Source of the DNA: Campylobacteraceae bacterium
Lineage (GTDB): Bacteria; Campylobacterota; Campylobacteria; Campylobacterales; Sulfurovaceae
DNA length: 34,239 nucleotides
Assembly: GCA_027076905.1 (NCBI GenBank)
Contig: JALTGP010000088.1
Coordinates: 1-34,239 of the forward strand
Direction: 5' to 3'
How positions within the stretch are numbered: the first letter of the stretch is position 1; every line of letters starts with the position of its first letter. Under the pieces are notes generated by a model. The model ran no database searches. It saw only the letters and a program-made list of their open reading frames with translations, and was not told the origin of the DNA. The translations under genes were made by a program, and so were the position numbers. Shown here piece by piece: positions 5,625-32,350 of this stretch.

Positions 5625-5675
5625 CATGGAAATTATAGCGAAAAACCACCTCTCTTCAGGGGGTGGATGAAAGCA
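5625..5675 (+). repeat. IS200/IS605-type left-end hairpin remnant
   Basis: The stretch from about 5626 shares over 20 bases with the left end of the mini-element at 32078-32120, followed in both by a CCACC...GGTGG hairpin and GGTGGATGAAAG. This is the usual form of a subterminal IS200/IS605 hairpin. No matching right end or transposase is nearby, so it looks like a solo end or an abortive remnant beside tsaD. Confidence 0.5.
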
Positions 5676-5791
5676 GTCGAACTGTTTTGCTACTTTTTCT
5701 TAATAATTATCTCTAGCTCTAAAAACTTAAGTTTAAAATCCATAACAGAGTTGGTACACTACTATATTTCCATTGTGGGATTTTTTAAACC

Positions 5792-17170: not shown

Positions 17171-17261
17171 TCCCTATAACTATCTTTATAATAATAGAAA
17201 GGAACAACAATAAAAAATAGGATGATTTTTACTTTATGCTATACAACCTAAGTCCCATATG

Positions 17262-17267
17262 CTATAA
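17262..17267 (+). promoter_or_regulatory. -10 element placing +1 at the nuc1 start codon
   Basis: TATAAT ends 8 nt before the ATG at 17275, so normal spacing puts transcription start at or next to the A of ATG. No ribosome site is possible in between; a leaderless mRNA is predicted. Confidence 0.6.
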
Positions 17268-17274
17268 TCAAACC

Positions 17275-18819
17275 ATGAAAAAGAATCTAAAAAAACTACC
17301 CATAGGCATTAGTACCTTTAGTAAAATAATGGAACAAGACTATCTCTATATTGACAAAACCAAAGAGGCTTATGAACTTATAATGCATTATCAATACGCC
17401 TTTCTCTCACGCCCTCGTCGTTTTGGAAAGTCACTTTTTATTGATACACTTCAAGAGATATTTGAGGGGAACAGAAAACTTTTTGAGGGTTTGTATATTG
17501 ATGATAAGTGGAATTTTGACGATAAATATCCTGTTATCAAGATAAATTGGGGTGGAAGTTTACGAAATGAAGAGGAGGTAAAACATACTATTTATGAACT
17601 TCTCAAAGAGAATCAAAAAAGATTAGACATAGAGTGTGAATTTAAAAAAAATCCATCAAGTTGTTTTAGAGAGCTCATTCACAAAGCCTATGAAAAGTAT
17701 CAAAAACCAGTAGTCATTTTAATAGATGAGTACGATAAACCCATTCTTGATAATCTTGACCATATGGAGGTAGCAAAAGCTAATCGAGAGATACTTAAAA
17801 GCCTCTATGTCATCATGAAAGACAACGACCGATACATCAAATTTGCTTTTTTAACAGGGGTGAGTAAGTTTACCAAAGCGAGTATTTTTAGTGGACTTAA
17901 TAATCTAAAAGATATAAGTATGTTACCCAAATATGGTAATGTTTGTGGCTATACACAAAATGATATAGAGACTACTATTTTACCCTATTTAGAGGGTGTC
18001 GATTTAAAGAAGTTAAAAGAGTGGTATAACGGTTACAACTTTCTAAAAGATAAAATCTATAATCCCTTTGATATACTGCTTTTTATAGATGCTGATTTCC
18101 TCTTTGATAATTATTGGTTCAATACAGGAACACCAAGCTTTTTAATTAAACTTTTTAAATCAAATGATTATAACCTAGCAAAATTTGAAAATCTAAGAGT
18201 TGGGAAAGAGTTAATAGAGAGTTTTGATATTGAAAATATTAGTTTAGAGACCGTTATGTTTCAAAGTGGTTACTTGACCATCAAAGAGCAGATATTAAGA
18301 AGAAATCGTATTCAATACCTCTTAACTTTTCCTAACCTAGAGACAAAAATGAGTTTTAACAACTATTTGTTAAACTATTTTGTCAAAAAACCAATAGATA
18401 AAATTCCCGTTCAAAATGATTTGGTAGATTTACTTGAAGTTGCCAATCTTGCTGATGTGGAGCAGACCATCAAATCACTCTTTGCCTCTATTGCCTATAA
18501 CAACTTTACCAAAAATGATATAGAGGAGTATGAGGGCTTTTATGCTAGTGTTATCTATGCCTATTTTGTGGGTGCAGGATTTGACAAAGTGTTAGCCGAA
18601 GATGTTACTAATGATGGGCGAATAGATTTGAGTGTATTTATTGACGATTATATCTATATTTTTGAGTTCAAAGTCGATAAAAAAGGGGCTTTGGAGCAGA
18701 TAAAAAGCAAAGAGTATTTTAATAAATATCTCTCTAGTGGAAAAGAGATTTATATTGTTGGGGTAGAGTTTGATTCTAATAGTCGTAATGTTGTTGGGTA
18801 TGATTGGGAGAGGATTTAG
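17275..18819 (+). CDS. AAA-ATPase-like / PD-(D/E)XK nuclease protein, copy 1 (nuc1)
   Basis: A 514-aa protein of the AAA-ATPase_like plus PDDEXK_9 (DUF1703) architecture. The ATPase half has LPIGISTFSKI, a Walker A of the form RPRRFGKS (46-53) and Walker B VVILIDEYD (146-154). The C-terminal nuclease has DGRIDLSV (D451) and IFEFKV (E464, K466). The family is widespread and multicopy in some genomes; its function is unknown. The start is the ATG at 17275, shared by all four paralogues; upstream codons in frame lie in the promoter. It converges on rep1 with 5 bp between the stops. Its 3' half (17698-18451) is identical to nuc2. The partner role of nuc and rep in plasmid maintenance or integration is inferred from repeated pairing. 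Confidence 0.88.
   Translation: MKKNLKKLPIGISTFSKIMEQDYLYIDKTKEAYELIMHYQYAFLSRPRRFGKSLFIDTLQEIFEGNRKLFEGLYIDDKWNFDDKYPVIKINWGGSLRNEEEVKHTIYELLKENQKRLDIECEFKKNPSSCFRELIHKAYEKYQKPVVILIDEYDKPILDNLDHMEVAKANREILKSLYVIMKDNDRYIKFAFLTGVSKFTKASIFSGLNNLKDISMLPKYGNVCGYTQNDIETTILPYLEGVDLKKLKEWYNGYNFLKDKIYNPFDILLFIDADFLFDNYWFNTGTPSFLIKLFKSNDYNLAKFENLRVGKELIESFDIENISLETVMFQSGYLTIKEQILRRNRIQYLLTFPNLETKMSFNNYLLNYFVKKPIDKIPVQNDLVDLLEVANLADVEQTIKSLFASIAYNNFTKNDIEEYEGFYASVIYAYFVGAGFDKVLAEDVTNDGRIDLSVFIDDYIYIFEFKVDKKGALEQIKSKEYFNKYLSSGKEIYIVGVEFDSNSRNVVGYDWERI
17698..18451 (+). repeat. 754-bp direct repeat shared by nuc1 and nuc2
   Basis: Compared base by base, this stretch is identical to 20711-21464, a constant offset of 3013 bp. 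Flanking sequence differs, so the identity is a local conversion tract or a recent duplication. Confidence 0.9.
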
Positions 18820-18824
18820 ACCAT

Positions 18825-19808
18825 TTATCCCTCCAAAACCCCTAACTTCCCATCTTTAGCTAACTCATAAAGAGTAGTCCAAATCTCATTGGCTCTTTTT
18901 GCATCAAATGACTCTCCACTTATTCTGTCGTAAAGTCTTCCCTTTGTTGATATGGATATGGTTATTCTTTTATGGGTATGTTTATCTATGGTATCTAAAA
19001 TATTTTTTCCTATACATGACGTTCGCGTGTACTCTATAAAAACTTTTCGATTAGACAAATAATACTCTGGTCGGATAATTAAATCTATGGTTACACTTGT
19101 TGCTTTTGGTCTTCCTCTTCCAATACATTCCATATTTGATTTATAAATAAATGTAGGAAGTGTGGGGTTATTGTCTAGTTCTTTTTGGGCTAGTTTTAAA
19201 ATTTTTCTTTCAATATCAGGGATTCTTTGATATTTTGTTCCAAAAAATTCATTTAAAGCATCAAGAGACATTCTTTTTCTTTTGCCTATATGTGAGTCAT
19301 ATCCTTTTATCTTTTCTAATAGAGGTAATAGTCGTAGCGTATGTTTACTTTTTAGTGACATTAAAACTTTTGTATCTATATAAGTATAATTATTTTTGAC
19401 TTCAATTATGAGTTTTGCTATTTTTGAGTATAAATCTATCTCTACACAATTATCACCATAAACTATCTCTATTCTTGGAACTAAAACAATCTTCTCTTCC
19501 CATTCCTTAAATTCATTGATAAAAGTGATAGAGGTCTCTTGCATTGCATCTAAATTATTTTTTATCTCTTGTGATGTCATTTTAGTATATTTAAACATCT
19601 CTTTCATATCAACTCTAACCGTATCCATCTGCTTGTCAAAATCAAACTTTTCTAAAATTGTAGCAAGGTAAAATATTGTTTTAATGGCATTACCATTACT
19701 CTTATTGATAGTGTTGTCTATAAAGTTATTGCTAATTTTTTTTCTTGGAGTGATTTTTTCTTTTTGACGCTCCTCTTTTTTTCTCTCTTTCCACTCTGCC
19801 ATTGTCAT
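18825..19808 (-). CDS. Rep_3-family plasmid replication initiator (rep1)
   Basis: A 327-aa initiator with the two winged-helix layout of Rep_3/RepB proteins that bind iterons and open the origin. Features are KISNNFIDN at the N-terminus, LYSKIAKLIIEV and VLMSLKSKHTLRLLPLLEKI in the first domain, MSLDALNEFFGTKYQRIPD, IERKILKLAQKELD and GRGRPKATSVTIDL in the second. A C-terminal extension of about 90 residues (HTHKRITISIST...) is almost identical in rep2. The ATG at 19808 has AGGAGA upstream. It is convergent with nuc1 and divergent from nuc2, with the iteron origin in its upstream gap. Autoregulation by Rep binding to the inverted iterons is likely. No partition, mobilisation or relaxase gene is nearby. 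Confidence 0.88.
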   Translation of the reverse strand: MTMAEWKERKKEERQKEKITPRKKISNNFIDNTINKSNGNAIKTIFYLATILEKFDFDKQMDTVRVDMKEMFKYTKMTSQEIKNNLDAMQETSITFINEFKEWEEKIVLVPRIEIVYGDNCVEIDLYSKIAKLIIEVKNNYTYIDTKVLMSLKSKHTLRLLPLLEKIKGYDSHIGKRKRMSLDALNEFFGTKYQRIPDIERKILKLAQKELDNNPTLPTFIYKSNMECIGRGRPKATSVTIDLIIRPEYYLSNRKVFIEYTRTSCIGKNILDTIDKHTHKRITISISTKGRLYDRISGESFDAKRANEIWTTLYELAKDGKLGVLEG

Positions 19809-20287: not shown

Positions 20288-21832
20288 ATGAAAAAGAATC
20301 TAAAAAAACTACCCATAGGCATTAGTACCTTTAGTAAAATAATTGATCAAGACTATCTCTACATTGACAAAACCAAAGAGGCTTATGAACTTATAACACA
20401 TTATCAATACGCCTTTCTATCACGCCCACGCCGTTTTGGAAAGTCACTTTTTATTGATACGCTTCAAGAGATATTTGAGGGAAATAAAAAACTTTTTGAG
20501 GGTTTATATATTGATGATAAATGGGATTTTGACGATAAATATCCTGTCATAAAGATAAATTGGGGTGGAGAGTTAAGAACACCATCAATGGTTAAAAATA
20601 GATTAGAAGATACACTTCTCTATAATCAAAAAAGATTGGGAATAATTTGTGATAAAACAGAACAGTTTGATTCATGTTTTGAAGAGTTAATTCGCAAAGC
20701 CTATGAAAAATATCAAAAACCAGTAGTCATTTTAATAGATGAGTACGATAAACCCATTCTTGATAATCTTGACCATATGGAGGTAGCAAAAGCTAATCGA
20801 GAGATACTTAAAAGCCTCTATGTCATCATGAAAGACAACGACCGATACATCAAATTTGCTTTTTTAACAGGGGTGAGTAAGTTTACCAAAGCGAGTATTT
20901 TTAGTGGACTTAATAATCTAAAAGATATAAGTATGTTACCCAAATATGGTAATGTTTGTGGCTATACACAAAATGATATAGAGACTACTATTTTACCCTA
21001 TTTAGAGGGTGTCGATTTAAAGAAGTTAAAAGAGTGGTATAACGGTTACAACTTTCTAAAAGATAAAATCTATAATCCCTTTGATATACTGCTTTTTATA
21101 GATGCTGATTTCCTCTTTGATAATTATTGGTTCAATACAGGAACACCAAGCTTTTTAATTAAACTTTTTAAATCAAATGATTATAACCTAGCAAAATTTG
21201 AAAATCTAAGAGTTGGGAAAGAGTTAATAGAGAGTTTTGATATTGAAAATATTAGTTTAGAGACCGTTATGTTTCAAAGTGGTTACTTGACCATCAAAGA
21301 GCAGATATTAAGAAGAAATCGTATTCAATACCTCTTAACTTTTCCTAACCTAGAGACAAAAATGAGTTTTAACAACTATTTGTTAAACTATTTTGTCAAA
21401 AAACCAATAGATAAAATTCCCGTTCAAAATGATTTGGTAGATTTACTTGAAGTTGCCAATCTTGATGCTGTGGAGCAGACCATCAAATCACTCTTTGCCT
21501 CTATTGCCTATAACAACTTTACAAAAAATGATATAGAGGAGTATGAGGGCTTTTATGCCAGTGTTATCTATGCCTATTTTGTGGGTGCAGGGTTTGATAA
21601 AGTATTAGCTGAAGATGTTACTAATGATGGACGAATAGATTTGAGTGTATTTATTGACGATTATATCTATATTTTTGAGTTTAAAGTTGATAAAAAAGGG
21701 GCTTTGGAGCAGATAAAAAGCAAAGAGTATTTTAATAAATATCTATCTAGTGGAAAAGAGATTTATATTGTTGGGGTGGAGTTTGATTCTAATAGTCGTA
21801 ATGTTGTTGGGTATGATTGGGAGAGGGTTTAA
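20288..21832 (+). CDS. AAA-ATPase-like / PD-(D/E)XK nuclease protein, copy 2 (nuc2, mosaic)
   Basis: A 514-aa paralogue with all motifs intact: RPRRFGKS, VVILIDEYD, DGRIDLSV and EFKV. It is a mosaic. From 20108 to 20460 the DNA, including the promoter and first 57 codons, is identical to the nuc4 copy (29932-30284). From 20711 to 21464 it is identical to nuc1. The 250 bp in between, residues about 58-141, contains a segment (ELRTPSMVKNRLEDTLLY) unlike any of the other three. Right after its stop codon the expected convergent rep is missing and radC begins. Function unknown; see nuc1 for family context. Confidence 0.88.
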   Translation: MKKNLKKLPIGISTFSKIIDQDYLYIDKTKEAYELITHYQYAFLSRPRRFGKSLFIDTLQEIFEGNKKLFEGLYIDDKWDFDDKYPVIKINWGGELRTPSMVKNRLEDTLLYNQKRLGIICDKTEQFDSCFEELIRKAYEKYQKPVVILIDEYDKPILDNLDHMEVAKANREILKSLYVIMKDNDRYIKFAFLTGVSKFTKASIFSGLNNLKDISMLPKYGNVCGYTQNDIETTILPYLEGVDLKKLKEWYNGYNFLKDKIYNPFDILLFIDADFLFDNYWFNTGTPSFLIKLFKSNDYNLAKFENLRVGKELIESFDIENISLETVMFQSGYLTIKEQILRRNRIQYLLTFPNLETKMSFNNYLLNYFVKKPIDKIPVQNDLVDLLEVANLDAVEQTIKSLFASIAYNNFTKNDIEEYEGFYASVIYAYFVGAGFDKVLAEDVTNDGRIDLSVFIDDYIYIFEFKVDKKGALEQIKSKEYFNKYLSSGKEIYIVGVEFDSNSRNVVGYDWERV

Positions 21833-27127: not shown

Positions 27128-28672
27128 ATGAAAAAGAATCTAAAAAAACTACCCATCGGCATTAGTACCTTTAGTGAGATAATCGAACAAGACTATCTCT
27201 ATATAGATAAAACAAAAGAGGCATATCGACTTATTACAAGCTACAAATACGCCTTTCTTTCACGCCCACGCCGTTTTGGAAAGTCACTTTTTATTGATAC
27301 GCTTCAAGAGATATTTGAGGGGAATAAGAAACTTTTTGAGGGGTTATATATTTATGATAAGTGGGATTTTGAAGATAAATACCCTGTTATTAAAATAAAT
27401 TGGGGTGGAGATTTACGAAGTGAAGAGAAAGTTAATCATACTATTTATGAGCTTCTAAAAGAGAATCAAAAAAGATTAGATATAGAGTGTGAATTTAAAA
27501 ATAATCCATCAAGTTGTTTTAGAGAACTCATTCATAAAGCTCATGAAAAATATCAAAAACCAGTGGTTATTTTAATAGATGAGTATGATAAACCAATTAT
27601 TGATAATCTTGACCAAATGGAAGTGGCAAAAGTCAATCGTGAAATACTCAAAGGTCTCTATGTAATCATGAAAGATAACGACCGATACATCAAATTTGCT
27701 TTTTTGACAGGGGTTAGTAAATTTACCAAAGCGAGTATTTTTAGTGGACTTAATAATTTAGAAGATATATCTCTTACCCCTGAGTTTGGAACAGTTTGTG
27801 GATATACTCATAATGATATAGAGAGTTCGTTTTTACCCTATTTAGAGGGAGTTAATTTAAAAGAGTTAAAAAAATGGTATGATGGTTATAACTTTTTAAA
27901 CGACAAAGTCTATAATCCTTTTGATATTTTACTATTTATTAAAAATCAATTGCTTTTCAAAAACTACTGGTTCAAAACAGGAACACCAAGCTTTTTAATT
28001 AAACTCTTTCAAACACAAAATTACAATTTAGCTAAATTTGAAAATCTAAAAGTATCTGAAGAGCTAATAGACAGTTTTGATATAGAAGATATTAGTTTAG
28101 AAACGGTTATGTTTCAAAGTGGTTATTTGACTATCAAAGAGCAGATAATAAGAAGAAATCGTATTCAATACATCTTAACTTTCCCTAACCTAGAGACCAA
28201 AATGAGTTTTAACAACTACTTGTTAAACTATTTTGTAAAGAAACCAATAGATAAACTTCCTATTCAAAATAGTTTAATAGACCTACTTGAAGTTGCAAAT
28301 CTCAATGATTTAGAGCAGACCATAAAATCACTATTTGCGTCCATTGCCTATAACAACTTTACCAAAAATGATATAGATGAGTATGAGGGCTTTTATGCTA
28401 GTGTGATTTATGCCTATTTTGTAGGTTCAGGGTTTGATAAGGTGTTAGCCGAAGATGTTACCAATGATGGACGAATTGATTTGAGTGTCTTTATAGATGA
28501 TAAAATCTATATTTTTGAGTTTAAAGTTGATAAAAAAGGGGCTTTGGAGCAGATAAAAAGCAAAGAGTATTTTAATAAATATCTCTCTAGTGGAAAAGAG
28601 ATTTATATTGTTGGGGTGGAGTTTGATTCTAATAGTCGTAATGTTGTTGGGTATGAGTGGGAGAGGGTTTAG
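27128..28672 (+). CDS. AAA-ATPase-like / PD-(D/E)XK nuclease protein, copy 3 (nuc3)
   Basis: A 514-aa paralogue with intact RPRRFGKS, VVILIDEYD, DGRIDLSV and EFKV motifs. Compared with nuc1 and nuc2 it carries scattered changes along its length (for example ITSYKYAFLSRP, NQLLFKNYWFKTG), so it is an older divergence. Its variable segment after INWGG is of the nuc1 type (HTIYELLKENQKRLDIECEF). It converges on rep2 with 5 bp between the stops, the same arrangement as nuc1-rep1. Upstream it has no origin: the cargo block ends about 30 bp before the start. Confidence 0.88.
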   Translation: MKKNLKKLPIGISTFSEIIEQDYLYIDKTKEAYRLITSYKYAFLSRPRRFGKSLFIDTLQEIFEGNKKLFEGLYIYDKWDFEDKYPVIKINWGGDLRSEEKVNHTIYELLKENQKRLDIECEFKNNPSSCFRELIHKAHEKYQKPVVILIDEYDKPIIDNLDQMEVAKVNREILKGLYVIMKDNDRYIKFAFLTGVSKFTKASIFSGLNNLEDISLTPEFGTVCGYTHNDIESSFLPYLEGVNLKELKKWYDGYNFLNDKVYNPFDILLFIKNQLLFKNYWFKTGTPSFLIKLFQTQNYNLAKFENLKVSEELIDSFDIEDISLETVMFQSGYLTIKEQIIRRNRIQYILTFPNLETKMSFNNYLLNYFVKKPIDKLPIQNSLIDLLEVANLNDLEQTIKSLFASIAYNNFTKNDIDEYEGFYASVIYAYFVGSGFDKVLAEDVTNDGRIDLSVFIDDKIYIFEFKVDKKGALEQIKSKEYFNKYLSSGKEIYIVGVEFDSNSRNVVGYEWERV

Positions 28673-28677
28673 ACCAT

Positions 28678-29658
28678 TTATCCCTCCAAAACCCCCAACT
28701 TCCCATCTTTAGCAAACTCATAAAGAGTAGTCCAAATCTCATTAGCTCTTTTTGCATCAAATGACTCTCCACTTATTCTGTCGTAAAGCTTTCCCTTAGT
28801 TGATATAGATATTGTTATTCTTTTATGGGTATGTTTATCTATGGTATCTAAAATATTTTTTCCTATACATGACGTTCGCGTGTACTCTATAAAAACTTTT
28901 CGACTAGATAAATAATACTCTGGTCTGATAATTAAATCTATGGTTACACTTGTTGCTCTTGGTCTTCCTCTTCCGAAGGATTCCATATGTACTTGATATA
29001 TAAATGTAAGAGTTGGACTATTGTCTAGCTCTTTTTGTGCAGGTTTTAAAACTCTCCTCTCTATATCTGCAATTCTTTTATATTTTGTTCCAAAAAAATC
29101 ATTTAATGCATTCAGTGACATTGTTTTTCTTTTACCTATATGAGCGTCATATCCCTTTATTTTCTCTAATAGAGGTAATATCCGTATGCTGTGCTTACTT
29201 TTTAGAGACATCAAAACACTTGTATCTATATAGGTATAATTATTTTTTACCTCAACTATCAATTTTGCTATTTTTGAATAGAGGTCTATGGTAATAAAAT
29301 TACTACCATAAGATATACTAATTTGAGGAATTAACACTATATATTTTTCCCACTCCTCTTTTTCATTAATAAATGTTATAGAGGTCTCTTGCATCATTTT
29401 TAAATTATTTCTTATCTCTTGCCTTGTCATCTCTGTATATTTAAGCATATCATTAAGGTCAATTTTCAGACTATCTAGCCTTAAATCAAAATTAAATTTA
29501 TCTAAAATTGTTGCTAAATAAAAAACTGTTTTAATCGCATTTATATTATTTTTGTTGATAGTATTATCAATGAAATTGTTACTAATTTTTTGTAGAGGTT
29601 TCTTTTTTTGCTCTTCAAGCTCTTTTGCTTTTTTTTCGTTCCACTCTGCTAATGTCAT
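28678..29658 (-). CDS. Rep_3-family plasmid replication initiator (rep2)
   Basis: A 326-aa initiator paralogous to rep1, with the same order of motifs: KISNNFIDN, LYSKIAKLIVEV, VLMSLKSKHSIRILPLLEKI, MSLNALNDFFGTKYKRIAD and GRGRPRATSVTIDL. The last 100 or so residues are nearly identical to rep1, but the N-terminal 200 differ at about a third of positions by eye. The iterons next to it also differ from those of rep1 (GTGACA instead of GTGACC), as expected if Rep specificity and iterons changed together. AGGAAA precedes the ATG at 29658. Convergent with nuc3, divergent from nuc4. Confidence 0.88.
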   Translation of the reverse strand: MTLAEWNEKKAKELEEQKKKPLQKISNNFIDNTINKNNINAIKTVFYLATILDKFNFDLRLDSLKIDLNDMLKYTEMTRQEIRNNLKMMQETSITFINEKEEWEKYIVLIPQISISYGSNFITIDLYSKIAKLIVEVKNNYTYIDTSVLMSLKSKHSIRILPLLEKIKGYDAHIGKRKTMSLNALNDFFGTKYKRIADIERRVLKPAQKELDNSPTLTFIYQVHMESFGRGRPRATSVTIDLIIRPEYYLSSRKVFIEYTRTSCIGKNILDTIDKHTHKRITISISTKGKLYDRISGESFDAKRANEIWTTLYEFAKDGKLGVLEG

Positions 29659-30111: not shown

Positions 30112-31653
30112 ATGAAAAAGAATCTAAAAAAACTACCCATAGGCATTAGTACCTTTAGTAAAATAATTGATCAAGACTATCTCTACATTGACAAAACCAA
30201 AGAGGCTTATGAACTTATAACACATTATCAATACGCCTTTCTATCACGCCCACGCCGTTTTGGAAAGTCACTTTTTATTGATACACTTCAAGAGATATTT
30301 GAGGGGAACAGAAAACTTTTTAAGGGTTTGTATATTGATGATAAGTGGGATTTTGACGATAAATATCCTGTCATTAAAATAAGTTTTAGTGGAAGCAGGG
30401 ACATAGAGGCATTAAAACAGAATATTTTTAGAAATATGAACGAAGCACAAGAAAAGTTAGGAATTGAGTGTAGTGAAAACTATAATTATGCTACCTGTTT
30501 TTCTGAATTAATCAAAAAGTCCTATGAGAAATATCAAAAACCTGTTGTTATCTTGGTAGATGAGTATGATAAAGCCATTTTAGACAATATTGACCAGATA
30601 GAAGTGGCTAAAGAGAGTCGTGAAGTGGTCAAGATACTCTATACACAGATTAAAGATAATGACCGATACATCAAATTTGCTTTTTTAACAGGGGTTAGTA
30701 AATTTACCAAGGCGAGTATTTTTAGTGGACTAAATAATTTAGAGGATATATCGCTCAATCCTGAATTTGGAACGGTTTGTGGATATACTCATAAGGATAT
30801 AGAGACTACGTTTTTACCCTATTTAGAGGGAGTAGATTTAGAAGAGTTGCAAAAATGGTACAACGGTTATAACTTTTTAAATGACAAAGTTTATAACCCT
30901 TTTGATGTTTTACTCTTTATTAAAAATAGATTTCTTTTTGACAACTACTGGTTTAACACAGGAACACCAAGCTTTTTAATTAAACTCTTTAAAGCAAACA
31001 GTTATAACCTAGCAAAATTTGAAAATCTAAAAGTCGGAAAAGAGCTAATAGAGAGTTTTGATATAGAAGACATTAGCTTAGAGACAGTTATGTTTCAGAG
31101 TGGTTACTTGACCATTAAAGAGCAGATAATAAGAAGAAATCGTATTCAATACCTCTTAACTTTTCCTAACCTAGAGACAAAAATGAGCTTTAACAACTAC
31201 CTCTTAAACTATTTTGTCAAAAGAGCAATAGATAAAATTCCTGTTCAAAATGATTTGGTAGACCTGCTTGAAGTTTCCAATCTTGATGATGTGGAGCAGA
31301 CCATAAAATCACTCTTTGCCTCCATTGCCTATAACAACTTTACCAAAAATGATATAGATGAGTATGAGGGCTTTTATGCCAGTGTTATCTATGCCTATTT
31401 TGTAGGTGCAGGATTTGATAAGGTATTAGCCGAAGATGTCACTAATGATGGACGAATTGATTTAAGTGTATTTATTGACGATTATATCTATATTTTTGAG
31501 TTCAAAGTTGATAAAAAAGGGGCTTTGGAGCAGATAAAAGAGAAAGAGTATTTTAACAAATATCTCTCTAGTGGTAAAGAGATTTATATTGTTGGGGTGG
31601 AGTTTGATTCTAATAGTCGTAATGTTGTTGGGTATGATTGGGAGAAGGTTTAG
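30112..31653 (+). CDS. AAA-ATPase-like / PD-(D/E)XK nuclease protein, copy 4 (nuc4)
   Basis: A 513-aa paralogue with intact Walker A RPRRFGKS, Walker B VVILVDEYD, DGRIDLSV and EFKV. Its first 57 codons and promoter are identical to nuc2. The segment after VIKI is of a third type (SFSGSRDIEALKQNIFRNMN) and continues divergent through Walker B to KSREVVKILYTQIKDN-like residues, after which it rejoins the common sequence. The -10 TATAAT ends seven bases before the ATG, as in nuc2. After its stop only the last ten codons of a convergent rep remain, followed by transposase debris. Confidence 0.88.
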   Translation: MKKNLKKLPIGISTFSKIIDQDYLYIDKTKEAYELITHYQYAFLSRPRRFGKSLFIDTLQEIFEGNRKLFKGLYIDDKWDFDDKYPVIKISFSGSRDIEALKQNIFRNMNEAQEKLGIECSENYNYATCFSELIKKSYEKYQKPVVILVDEYDKAILDNIDQIEVAKESREVVKILYTQIKDNDRYIKFAFLTGVSKFTKASIFSGLNNLEDISLNPEFGTVCGYTHKDIETTFLPYLEGVDLEELQKWYNGYNFLNDKVYNPFDVLLFIKNRFLFDNYWFNTGTPSFLIKLFKANSYNLAKFENLKVGKELIESFDIEDISLETVMFQSGYLTIKEQIIRRNRIQYLLTFPNLETKMSFNNYLLNYFVKRAIDKIPVQNDLVDLLEVSNLDDVEQTIKSLFASIAYNNFTKNDIDEYEGFYASVIYAYFVGAGFDKVLAEDVTNDGRIDLSVFIDDYIYIFEFKVDKKGALEQIKEKEYFNKYLSSGKEIYIVGVEFDSNSRNVVGYDWEKV

Positions 31654-31658
31654 ACCAT

Positions 31659-31690
31659 TTACCCCTCCAAAACCCCCAACTTCCCATCTT
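31659..31690 (-). pseudogene. rep 3'-end remnant (last ~10 codons)
   Basis: The stretch matches the final codons and stop of rep1 and rep2 (KDGKLGVLEG) in the same position after nuc4. Homology breaks off abruptly at about 31690, where transposase sequence begins. It shows that nuc4 once had a convergent rep. Confidence 0.8.
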
Positions 31691-31905
31691 TTCCTTATGC
31701 GTAAGTGTAACTCCCTTTTCATATACCTTTTGACAAAGATGAACAATAGGCTTTATCCCTTTCCAAGTCATGGTTTTAGACCATTTAACTGCCTTCTTTA
31801 TTGAATCTAAAATTTCTCCATTCCAATGCTCTTCTAATCTTCCCCAACATCTCTCAATAGCATTATATTTACAATGTTGTTTAGAGTAGGATAAAATATC
31901 TCTAA
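31691..31905 (-). pseudogene. DDE transposase C-terminal fragment (ISAzo13-like)
   Basis: Translated on the minus strand this reads KYNAIERCWGRLEEHWNG, then AVKWSKTMTWKGIKPIV and VYEKGVTLTH. The IERCWG block holds the catalytic Glu of a DDE transposase and the MTWKG...KGV order resembles ISAzo13-type enzymes. Only about 70 residues remain: the catalytic Asp residues and the N-terminus are missing, and the C-terminus is fused to the rep remnant. It is a non-functional fragment. Confidence 0.7.
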
Positions 31906-31943
31906 TTATAACTGATGTTACGCAACTTTTTATAGTTCCCACC

Positions 31944-32080
31944 GAGGACGGGATGTCAATGAAATAAGGAATTAAGACTTGAAATTGAACCTACAAGATT
32001 TGATCTTATTTCAATGGCGTTGCCTAGGATGGATGGTAACAAGTAAAATATTTTAACGTCGAGTGGGATTTTTATCAAAT
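31944..32080. other. Unassigned segment with nested inverted repeats
   Basis: No intact gene. TGAAATAAG (about 31964) pairs with CTTATTTCA (about 32006), and an outer imperfect pair TCCCACCGAGGACG with CGTCGAGTGGGA encloses it. It may be a decayed mobile-element end or coding remnant (one frame reads VPTEDGMSMK then stop), but I cannot assign it. Confidence 0.3.
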
Positions 32081-32350
32081 TATAGCGAAAAACCACCTCC
32101 TTTAGGTGGTGGATGAAAGTGGTAGATTTTAAGAAAAAACTTTAATAACAAAATTAAACATTCTATAATTCTTTTTTCGCTACAATAACCCTATGTGAGG
32201 TACAGCATACCTACGAAAACCAAGTAGTCGCAGTCTTCACAAAAAACTTAGTCTAGGCAGGTCATGTCGGACTATAAAAGCTTCCTCAATATCCTAACAT
32301 TAGTTGGGAGTTCTGAAGAATCCACCTTCTTTAGGGGGTGGAGTTGTCAA
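32078..32350 (+). mobile_element. IS200/IS605-type mini-element without transposase
   Basis: The left end has a subterminal hairpin, CCACCTCCTTTAGGTGGTGG (32093-32112), followed by ATGAAAG. The right end has hairpin TCCACC...GGTGGA (32321-32342) followed by GTTGTCAA, the usual IS200/IS605 right-end form. No tnpA or tnpB lies between or beside them, so it is a palindrome-associated mini-element that would need enzymes in trans. It ends 14 bp short of the jetD stop codon. Confidence 0.6.
32193..32350 (+). ncRNA. Candidate TnpB omega-RNA (guide RNA scaffold)
   Basis: A promoter-like TACAAT (32181-32186) is followed by about 155 nt with successive hairpins: AGGTA/TACCT (32198-32212), TAGTC/GACTA (32249-32274), CCTAAC/GTTGGG (32293-32308) and the terminal right-end hairpin. 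In IS200/IS605 elements this 3' region is the omega-RNA scaffold, with the guide beginning just past the element end, here after 32350. Assignment rests on position and folding by eye. Confidence 0.45.

What the first reader, a model, noticed from the sequence alone, without database searches (positions are those of the whole stretch)
32078..32350. Stand-alone omega-RNA-like mini-element of IS200/IS605 type
Both subterminal hairpins of an IS200/IS605 element are present, with ~150 nt of promoter-led, hairpin-rich sequence in front of the right end, but no tnpA or tnpB. This is what a mobilisable solo guide-RNA element would look like. Its guide would be the bases right after 32350, in the jetD 3' gap, so it may still program a TnpB encoded elsewhere.
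Basis: partly seen in the sequence, partly recalled or inferred. Interest (0 to 1): 0.65.

Follow-up and report, generated by a model that had tools for sequence, protein, structure and literature searches.

The report
tnpB-less mini transposon keeping guide-RNA end
This is a real 275-base jumping element present in a dozen copies in a Sulfurovum-like genome; it has lost both protein genes of its parent transposon but kept the folded end that, in the parent, makes a guide RNA, so it may still use a related nuclease made elsewhere; elements of this general kind (PATEs) are already known.

Summary
Confirmed and sharpened. Window 32076-32350 is a complete 275-bp non-autonomous IS200/IS605 element: 9 intact copies (98-100% identical), 3 cut by contig ends and 1 decayed, all at unrelated sites. 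All 15 checked sites (9 full, 6 terminal-only) start after TTAT, and one insertion has a clean empty site in a related genome without target duplication. Both hairpin feet carry the IS608-type code (GAAT with TCAA; AAAA with TTAT). tnpB-bearing relatives with the same right end exist in the genus; G032 has tnpA and tnpB and matches at 93% over the last 75 bp. The right-end omega-RNA-like hairpins are kept with strong covariation, and a short in-frame remnant of the TnpB C-terminus lies under the first. Similar tnpB-less elements occur in three more genomes of the genus. This is a PATE (palindrome-associated transposable element), presumably moved in trans, with a retained omega-RNA module. Whether it is transcribed and loads a TnpB is untested: no cognate TnpB or TnpA is in the 85%-complete assembly, the promoter match is at chance level, and some copies break a pair. 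Its 46-bp terminal-only derivatives also match PATE precedent. New member of a known kind; the trans-acting guide is plausible, not shown.

The parts
32072..32075 (+). target tetranucleotide TTAT kept in the left flank (would also be the TAM for a cognate TnpB)
   Evidence: 15 of 15 sites (9 full, 6 terminal-only copies) read TTATC; empty site in G012:C71 reads TTTTTTAT|ACAAAGG; 28 of 33 distinct LE contexts in the loci held have TTAT
32076..32350 (+). whole element, 275 bp
   Evidence: repeat unit in 9 intact copies; boundary from empty site
32089..32092 (+). left guide AAAA at the foot of the LE hairpin (IS608: AAAG for target TTAC)
   Evidence: sequence; IS608 code from PMC5934647; inferred by analogy
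32093..32112 (+). LE subterminal hairpin CCACCTCCTTTAGGTGGTGG
   Evidence: sequence; conserved in full-length and mini relatives
32142..32169 (+). promoter-like TTAATA-16-TATAAT
   Evidence: 0.9 expected by chance, so weak
32211..32227 (+). small hairpin SL0, loop GAAAACCAA
   Evidence: 4 pairs all with both-side changes across minis; few sequences, partly chosen by eye
32250..32273 (+). SL1 hairpin AGTC..GACT around GGCA-GGTCA-TGTC
   Evidence: 8 pairs, two with compensatory changes among minis
32250..32285 (+). in-frame remnant SLGRSCRTIKAS of a TnpB C-terminus
   Evidence: same frame in three mini families, resembles ESLGLGTNLQDYKSE / ESFGVGTTLVDLKHKAS of TnpB copies L074, L085, L070
32293..32308 (+). 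SL2 hairpin CCTAAC-ATTA-GTTGGG
   Evidence: all 6 pairs change on both sides across 12 right ends
32318..32321 (+). right guide GAAT at the foot of the RE hairpin (identical to IS608)
   Evidence: PMC5934647
32322..32341 (+). RE subterminal hairpin CCACCTTCTTTAGGGGGTGG
32347..32350 (+). right cleavage site TCAA, element end
   Evidence: PMC5934647
32351..32366 (+). predicted guide if the right end is transcribed (about 16 nt of flank); runs into the stop codon of jetD on the other strand
   Evidence: inference from ISDra2 (about 16 nt guide, PMC8612924); jetD by Pfam

Best explanation
A PATE-type (palindrome-associated) non-autonomous derivative of an IS200/IS605 element. It keeps the left end, the last codons of tnpB in decayed form, and the whole right end with its omega-RNA scaffold. 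Shown by sequence: mobility as a unit, the TTAT target, the IS608-type end code, and a conserved covarying fold shared with tnpB-bearing elements. Inferred: a Y1 transposase of a partner such as the G032 element moves it in trans by the single-strand route of IS608. Inferred and less certain: when transcribed through its right end it gives an omega-RNA with about 16 nt of flank as guide, which a partner TnpB can load to cut the empty donor site (TTAT + flank) and so restore the copy after excision.
For: Multi-copy unit with unrelated flanks; uniform TTAT target; exact empty site without target duplication for copy L006 in G012:C71; GAAT/TCAA and AAAA/TTAT at the hairpin feet, against IS608 GAAT/TCAA and AAAG/TTAC; complete tnpA+tnpB element in G032 with the same ends, Pfam Y1_Tnp E 4.9e-39 and OrfB_IS605/Cas12f1-like_TNB E 2.7e-26/8.3e-24, RE 93% identical; covariation in SL2 and RE hairpin, 27 both-side cells against 8.2 in shuffles and at most 8 in slid controls; tnpB-less relatives in G020, G013 and G015 whose SL1 covaries; TnpB C-terminal remnant in frame; 3' module of each mini closest to a tnpB-bearing element (G013 mini 97% to G013 full, G000 mini 92% to G032 full, the two minis only 70% to each other).
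Against: No cognate tnpB or tnpA in the held assembly, 84.7% complete. No expression data. Promoter match at chance level. Three copies (L007-L009) carry G32307A, which breaks an SL2 pair. The block 5' of SL1 is not demonstrably homologous between this genome and G013: a hold-out model built without G000 did not find the window. The covariation may have arisen in tnpB-bearing ancestors.
Confidence: 0.6

Rival explanations
1. A plain PATE: mobile or formerly mobile through its ends only; the omega-RNA part is a passive remnant of the deleted parent, kept because the right-end hairpin is needed for transposition.
For: All mobility evidence holds without an RNA; weak promoter; copies with a broken SL2 pair; terminal-only 46-bp copies show that the interior is not needed to persist; no TnpB partner found in the genome.
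Against: SL1 and SL2 lie outside the TnpA-recognised ends yet keep their pairing through both-side changes, also between the mini families of G000, G020 and G013; the 275-bp form, not the shortest form, is the commonest in this genome (9 intact plus 3 cut, against 6).
Confidence: 0.33
2. A REP/BIME-like repeat spread by a RAYT-type domesticated Y1 protein of the host (the Y1_Tnp-SapC fusion on contig C22).
For: It is the only Y1_Tnp match in the assembly, fused to SapC.
Against: Element ends, the IS608 code and a complete IS200/IS605 partner with the same ends in the same genus; the C22 protein shows no link to these hairpins.
Confidence: 0.03
3. An unrelated small regulatory RNA or chance hairpins beside jetD.
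For: It lies 13 nt from the jetD stop codon.
Against: Exact multi-copy unit at unrelated loci; no Rfam family at gathering threshold.
Confidence: 0.02

Closest known systems
PATEs of Haloquadratum walsbyi (PMC3119063)
   Same: IS605-derived, no terminal inverted repeats, near-terminal palindromes, no target duplication, transposase-free, multi-copy; 52-bp terminal-only forms from core deletion parallel the 46-bp forms here; HqIRS71 also keeps part of a C-terminal coding region
   Different: Archaeal; that paper predates omega-RNA and, in the passages read, does not test the right-end RNA fold
PATE-like element of Halanaerobium hydrogeniformans (PMC7290912)
   Same: About 271 nt: LE hairpin, last 58 nt of tnpB and the entire 160-nt right end, almost the same anatomy
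   Different: One copy only; no fold or mobility evidence in the passages read
ISDra2 TnpB and its reRNA (PMC8612924)
   Same: Guide RNA from the tnpB 3' end plus right end, about 16 nt of flank as guide, TAM equals the TnpA target
   Different: There the RNA comes from a tnpB-bearing element; ISDra2 target is TTGAT, here TTAT
IS608 of Helicobacter pylori (PMC5934647)
   Same: GAAT/TCAA right-end code identical, left code of the same layout
   Different: AAAG/TTAC becomes AAAA/TTAT; IS608 carries its genes

Membership tests
PATE (palindrome-associated transposable element) | too short to encode a transposase | tested here: met
   275 bp, no tnpA or tnpB in it
PATE (palindrome-associated transposable element) | near-terminal palindromes related to those of IS605-type elements, no terminal inverted repeats | tested here: met
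   ends match the tnpA+tnpB element G032:C134
PATE (palindrome-associated transposable element) | no target duplication, precise insertion 3' of a short target | tested here: met
   empty site in G012; 15 of 15 sites TTATC
PATE (palindrome-associated transposable element) | mobilised in trans by a Y1 transposase | not testable with these tools
   needs an excision assay; partner TnpA known in G032 but not in this assembly
TnpB omega-RNA | right-end scaffold homologous to one downstream of a tnpB, with conserved fold | tested here: met
TnpB omega-RNA | transcribed through the right end into the flank | not testable with these tools
   no RNA data; promoter match at chance level
TnpB omega-RNA | bound by TnpB and guides cleavage next to the TAM | not testable with these tools
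   needs protein and assay
Autonomous IS200/IS605 element | carries tnpA and/or tnpB | tested here: not met

The most novel reading that the evidence does not exclude
A lineage of dedicated stand-alone omega-RNA elements in Sulfurovum-like bacteria: freed from the tnpB reading frame they keep their own SL1 and a 5' part never seen next to tnpB (R2 model: found in 4 genomes of the genus, in none of the other sampled order-level genomes), borrow the right-end module of a resident tnpB element, and hijack its TnpB in trans to secure their own copies.
Probability: 0.35. Interest if true: 0.6.

Novelty: new member of a known kind. Interest (0 to 1): 0.42.

Why it matters
If the right ends are expressed, one TnpB could be programmed by many guide loci in trans, each protecting its own transposon copy: a simple natural multi-guide system, and a test case for how guide RNAs became separate from their nuclease genes. 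A set of nine near-identical natural scaffolds with different guides is also a convenient experimental set.

Tried and rejected
No match in plasmid or phage records or in viral contigs by pattern. Rfam has no matching family. The two TnpB fragments of the own genome (C61, C152) have a different right end, so they are not the partner. A first MAFFT alignment misplaced SL1 between minis and full-length copies; SL1 was then compared arm by arm, by hand, so that part is weaker evidence. A hold-out model of the block 5' of SL1 failed to find the window, so I do not claim that block is homologous between this genome and G013; shuffles support it only for G000 with one G020 copy (0 of 500; 76 of 500 with the other). 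Joined flanks of other copies gave no clean empty site because their intergenic flanks were too diverged. Two relevant papers, on TnpB and IscB guide RNAs, were not held; from memory, unchecked, PATEs with omega-RNA and stand-alone IscB omega-RNAs have been reported there.

Full report
OBSERVATION. A search of the window's own genome (G000, 2.37 Mb, 318 contigs, 84.7% complete) gives 9 complete copies including the window, at 98-100% identity, three further copies cut by contig ends (C214, C235, C243) and one decayed copy (C61). Flanks are unrelated. In all 9 complete copies and all 6 terminal-only copies the left flank reads TTATC before AAATTATAG. For copy L006 (contig C208) the two flanks, joined, match one contiguous stretch of a related genome (G012:C71) at 83%, and the junction reads TTTTTTAT|ACAAAGG there: a clean empty site with no duplication. 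No gene lies inside; jetD (Pfam JetD_C, DUF3322) ends 13 nt away on the other strand.

ENDS. IS608 is cut at TTAC (left) and TCAA (right), read by guides AAAG and GAAT at the 5' foot of the hairpins (PMC5934647). Here the right end has GAAT at the foot and TCAA at the end, and the left end has AAAA at the foot with TTAT as target: the change in the target is matched by the change in the guide. 28 of 33 distinct left-end contexts in the loci held have TTAT. This is inferred from sequence; no cleavage was tested.

PARTNERS. Among 59 related genomes, G032:C134 has a complete element with the same left end, a divergent tnpA (157 aa, Y1_Tnp E 4.9e-39), a tnpB (375 aa from the start used; OrfB_IS605 and Cas12f1-like_TNB) and a right end 93% identical over 75 bp. 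Named records with this right end are Sulfurovum sp. UBA1140 and Campylobacteraceae MAGs. The own assembly holds only two fragments of another TnpB type and one Y1 domain fused to SapC. Because repeated elements are often lost from such assemblies, absence here is weak evidence.

FOLD. Twelve right ends (minis and tnpB-bearing) were aligned. SL2 and the terminal hairpin form standard pairs in 96.9% of cells (shuffled 77.6%), with 27 both-side changes (shuffled 8.2) and 9 pairs with both-side changes (3 of 500 shuffles reach that); slid controls fall to 41-53% paired. All six SL2 pairs change on both sides. SL1 pairs in all copies compared, with arms picked by hand, and covaries among minis. 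A covariance model of the 3' part finds right ends in 14 of 34 genomes of the genus; several have tnpB coding directly upstream and others do not.

OTHER MINIS. tnpB-less relatives with a left end about 180-200 nt away, or decayed forms of them, occur in G020, G013 and G015. They share SL1 with the base AGTC..GACT(T/A)TAAA; in the frame of SL1 the three families read a decayed TnpB C-terminus (SLGRSCRTIKAS, SLGRACPTLNAP, SQGGVHLTINAS) resembling ESLGLGTNLQDYKSE of other TnpBs. So SL1 most likely stems from the end of tnpB, and the deletion kept it. A model of the mini 5' part plus SL1 finds only G000, G020, G013 and G015 in the genus and nothing outside the genus among 399 genomes of the order, under stricter filters; none of the hits has tnpB beside it in the sequences I read. 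The part 5' of SL1 taken alone is supported as homologous between G000 and G020 but not between G000 and G013. The 3' module behaves differently: the G013 mini is 97% identical to the G013 tnpB-bearing copy and the G000 mini 92% to G032, but the two minis only 70% to each other. This mosaic fits repeated capture of, or exchange with, the resident partner's right end; independent deletions are not excluded.

SHORTER FORMS. The same genome has six 46-bp copies in which the left and right hairpins are fused into one (5 with the left-end loop, 1 with the right-end loop), G020 has nine and G032 one. The same was described for PATEs of Haloquadratum, where core deletion between the palindromes leaves 52 bp, perhaps still mobile (PMC3119063).

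MECHANISM. Shown: unit structure, copy number, target, one empty site, shared ends with an autonomous element, conserved fold. Inferred: movement in trans by a Y1 TnpA; possible use of the right end as guide RNA by a partner TnpB, which would cut the emptied donor site (TTAT plus flank) and restore the copy, as proposed for ISDra2 (PMC8612924). Against the RNA step: promoter match at chance level, a pair-breaking change in three copies, no partner found in the assembly.

PLACE AMONG KNOWN THINGS. It meets the tested features of a PATE. The Halanaerobium PATE-like element (271 nt: LE hairpin, last 58 nt of tnpB, 160 nt of RE) is nearly the same anatomy. What is added here is a multi-copy bacterial family in a Sulfurovum-like genus with a covarying omega-RNA module and related families in other species. 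New member of a known kind; the reading as a dedicated trans-acting guide is plausible and testable.

Noticed in passing
G000: C99:24949, C171:27448, C215:4660, C308:1593, C259:25229, C61:833; G020 nine places; G032:C134:6319: 46/47-bp terminal-only elements with one fused LE/RE hairpin, after TTAT in G000, as in Haloquadratum PATEs; five of six in G000 have the same crossover, so they may be mobile themselves.
   Followed up: partly
window 5631-5705 (also G000 C189:4033, C256:16563): Left end only of another IS200/IS605 element, sharing a stretch of about 30 bp after the hairpin (GTCGAACTGCTTTGCTACTTTTTCTTA) with other remnants: a different, probably longer element.
   Followed up: partly
L061:1368-2774 (G000:C22): Y1_Tnp (IS200-like transposase) domain fused to a SapC domain, 468 aa: a possibly domesticated Y1 protein.
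   Followed up: no
window 17236-18819, 20288-21832, 27128-28672, 30112-31653: Four AAA-ATPase_like/PDDEXK_9 genes of about 514 aa in 15 kb.
   Followed up: partly
window 18825-19808 and 28678-29658, minus strand: Two plasmid-type Rep3 initiators, 78% identical, each tail to tail with an AAA-ATPase_like gene: a duplicated module, perhaps of plasmid origin.
   Followed up: partly
window 31610-31942, minus strand: Fragment of a DDE_Tnp_ISAZ013 transposase just before the element.
   Followed up: no
window 31957-32016: Inverted repeat CAATGAAATAAG/CTTATTTCAATG; parts of this stretch recur on three other contigs.
   Followed up: partly
L057:376-494 (G020:C66): A 119-bp internal-deletion derivative, between the full mini and the terminal-only form in length.
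   Followed up: partly
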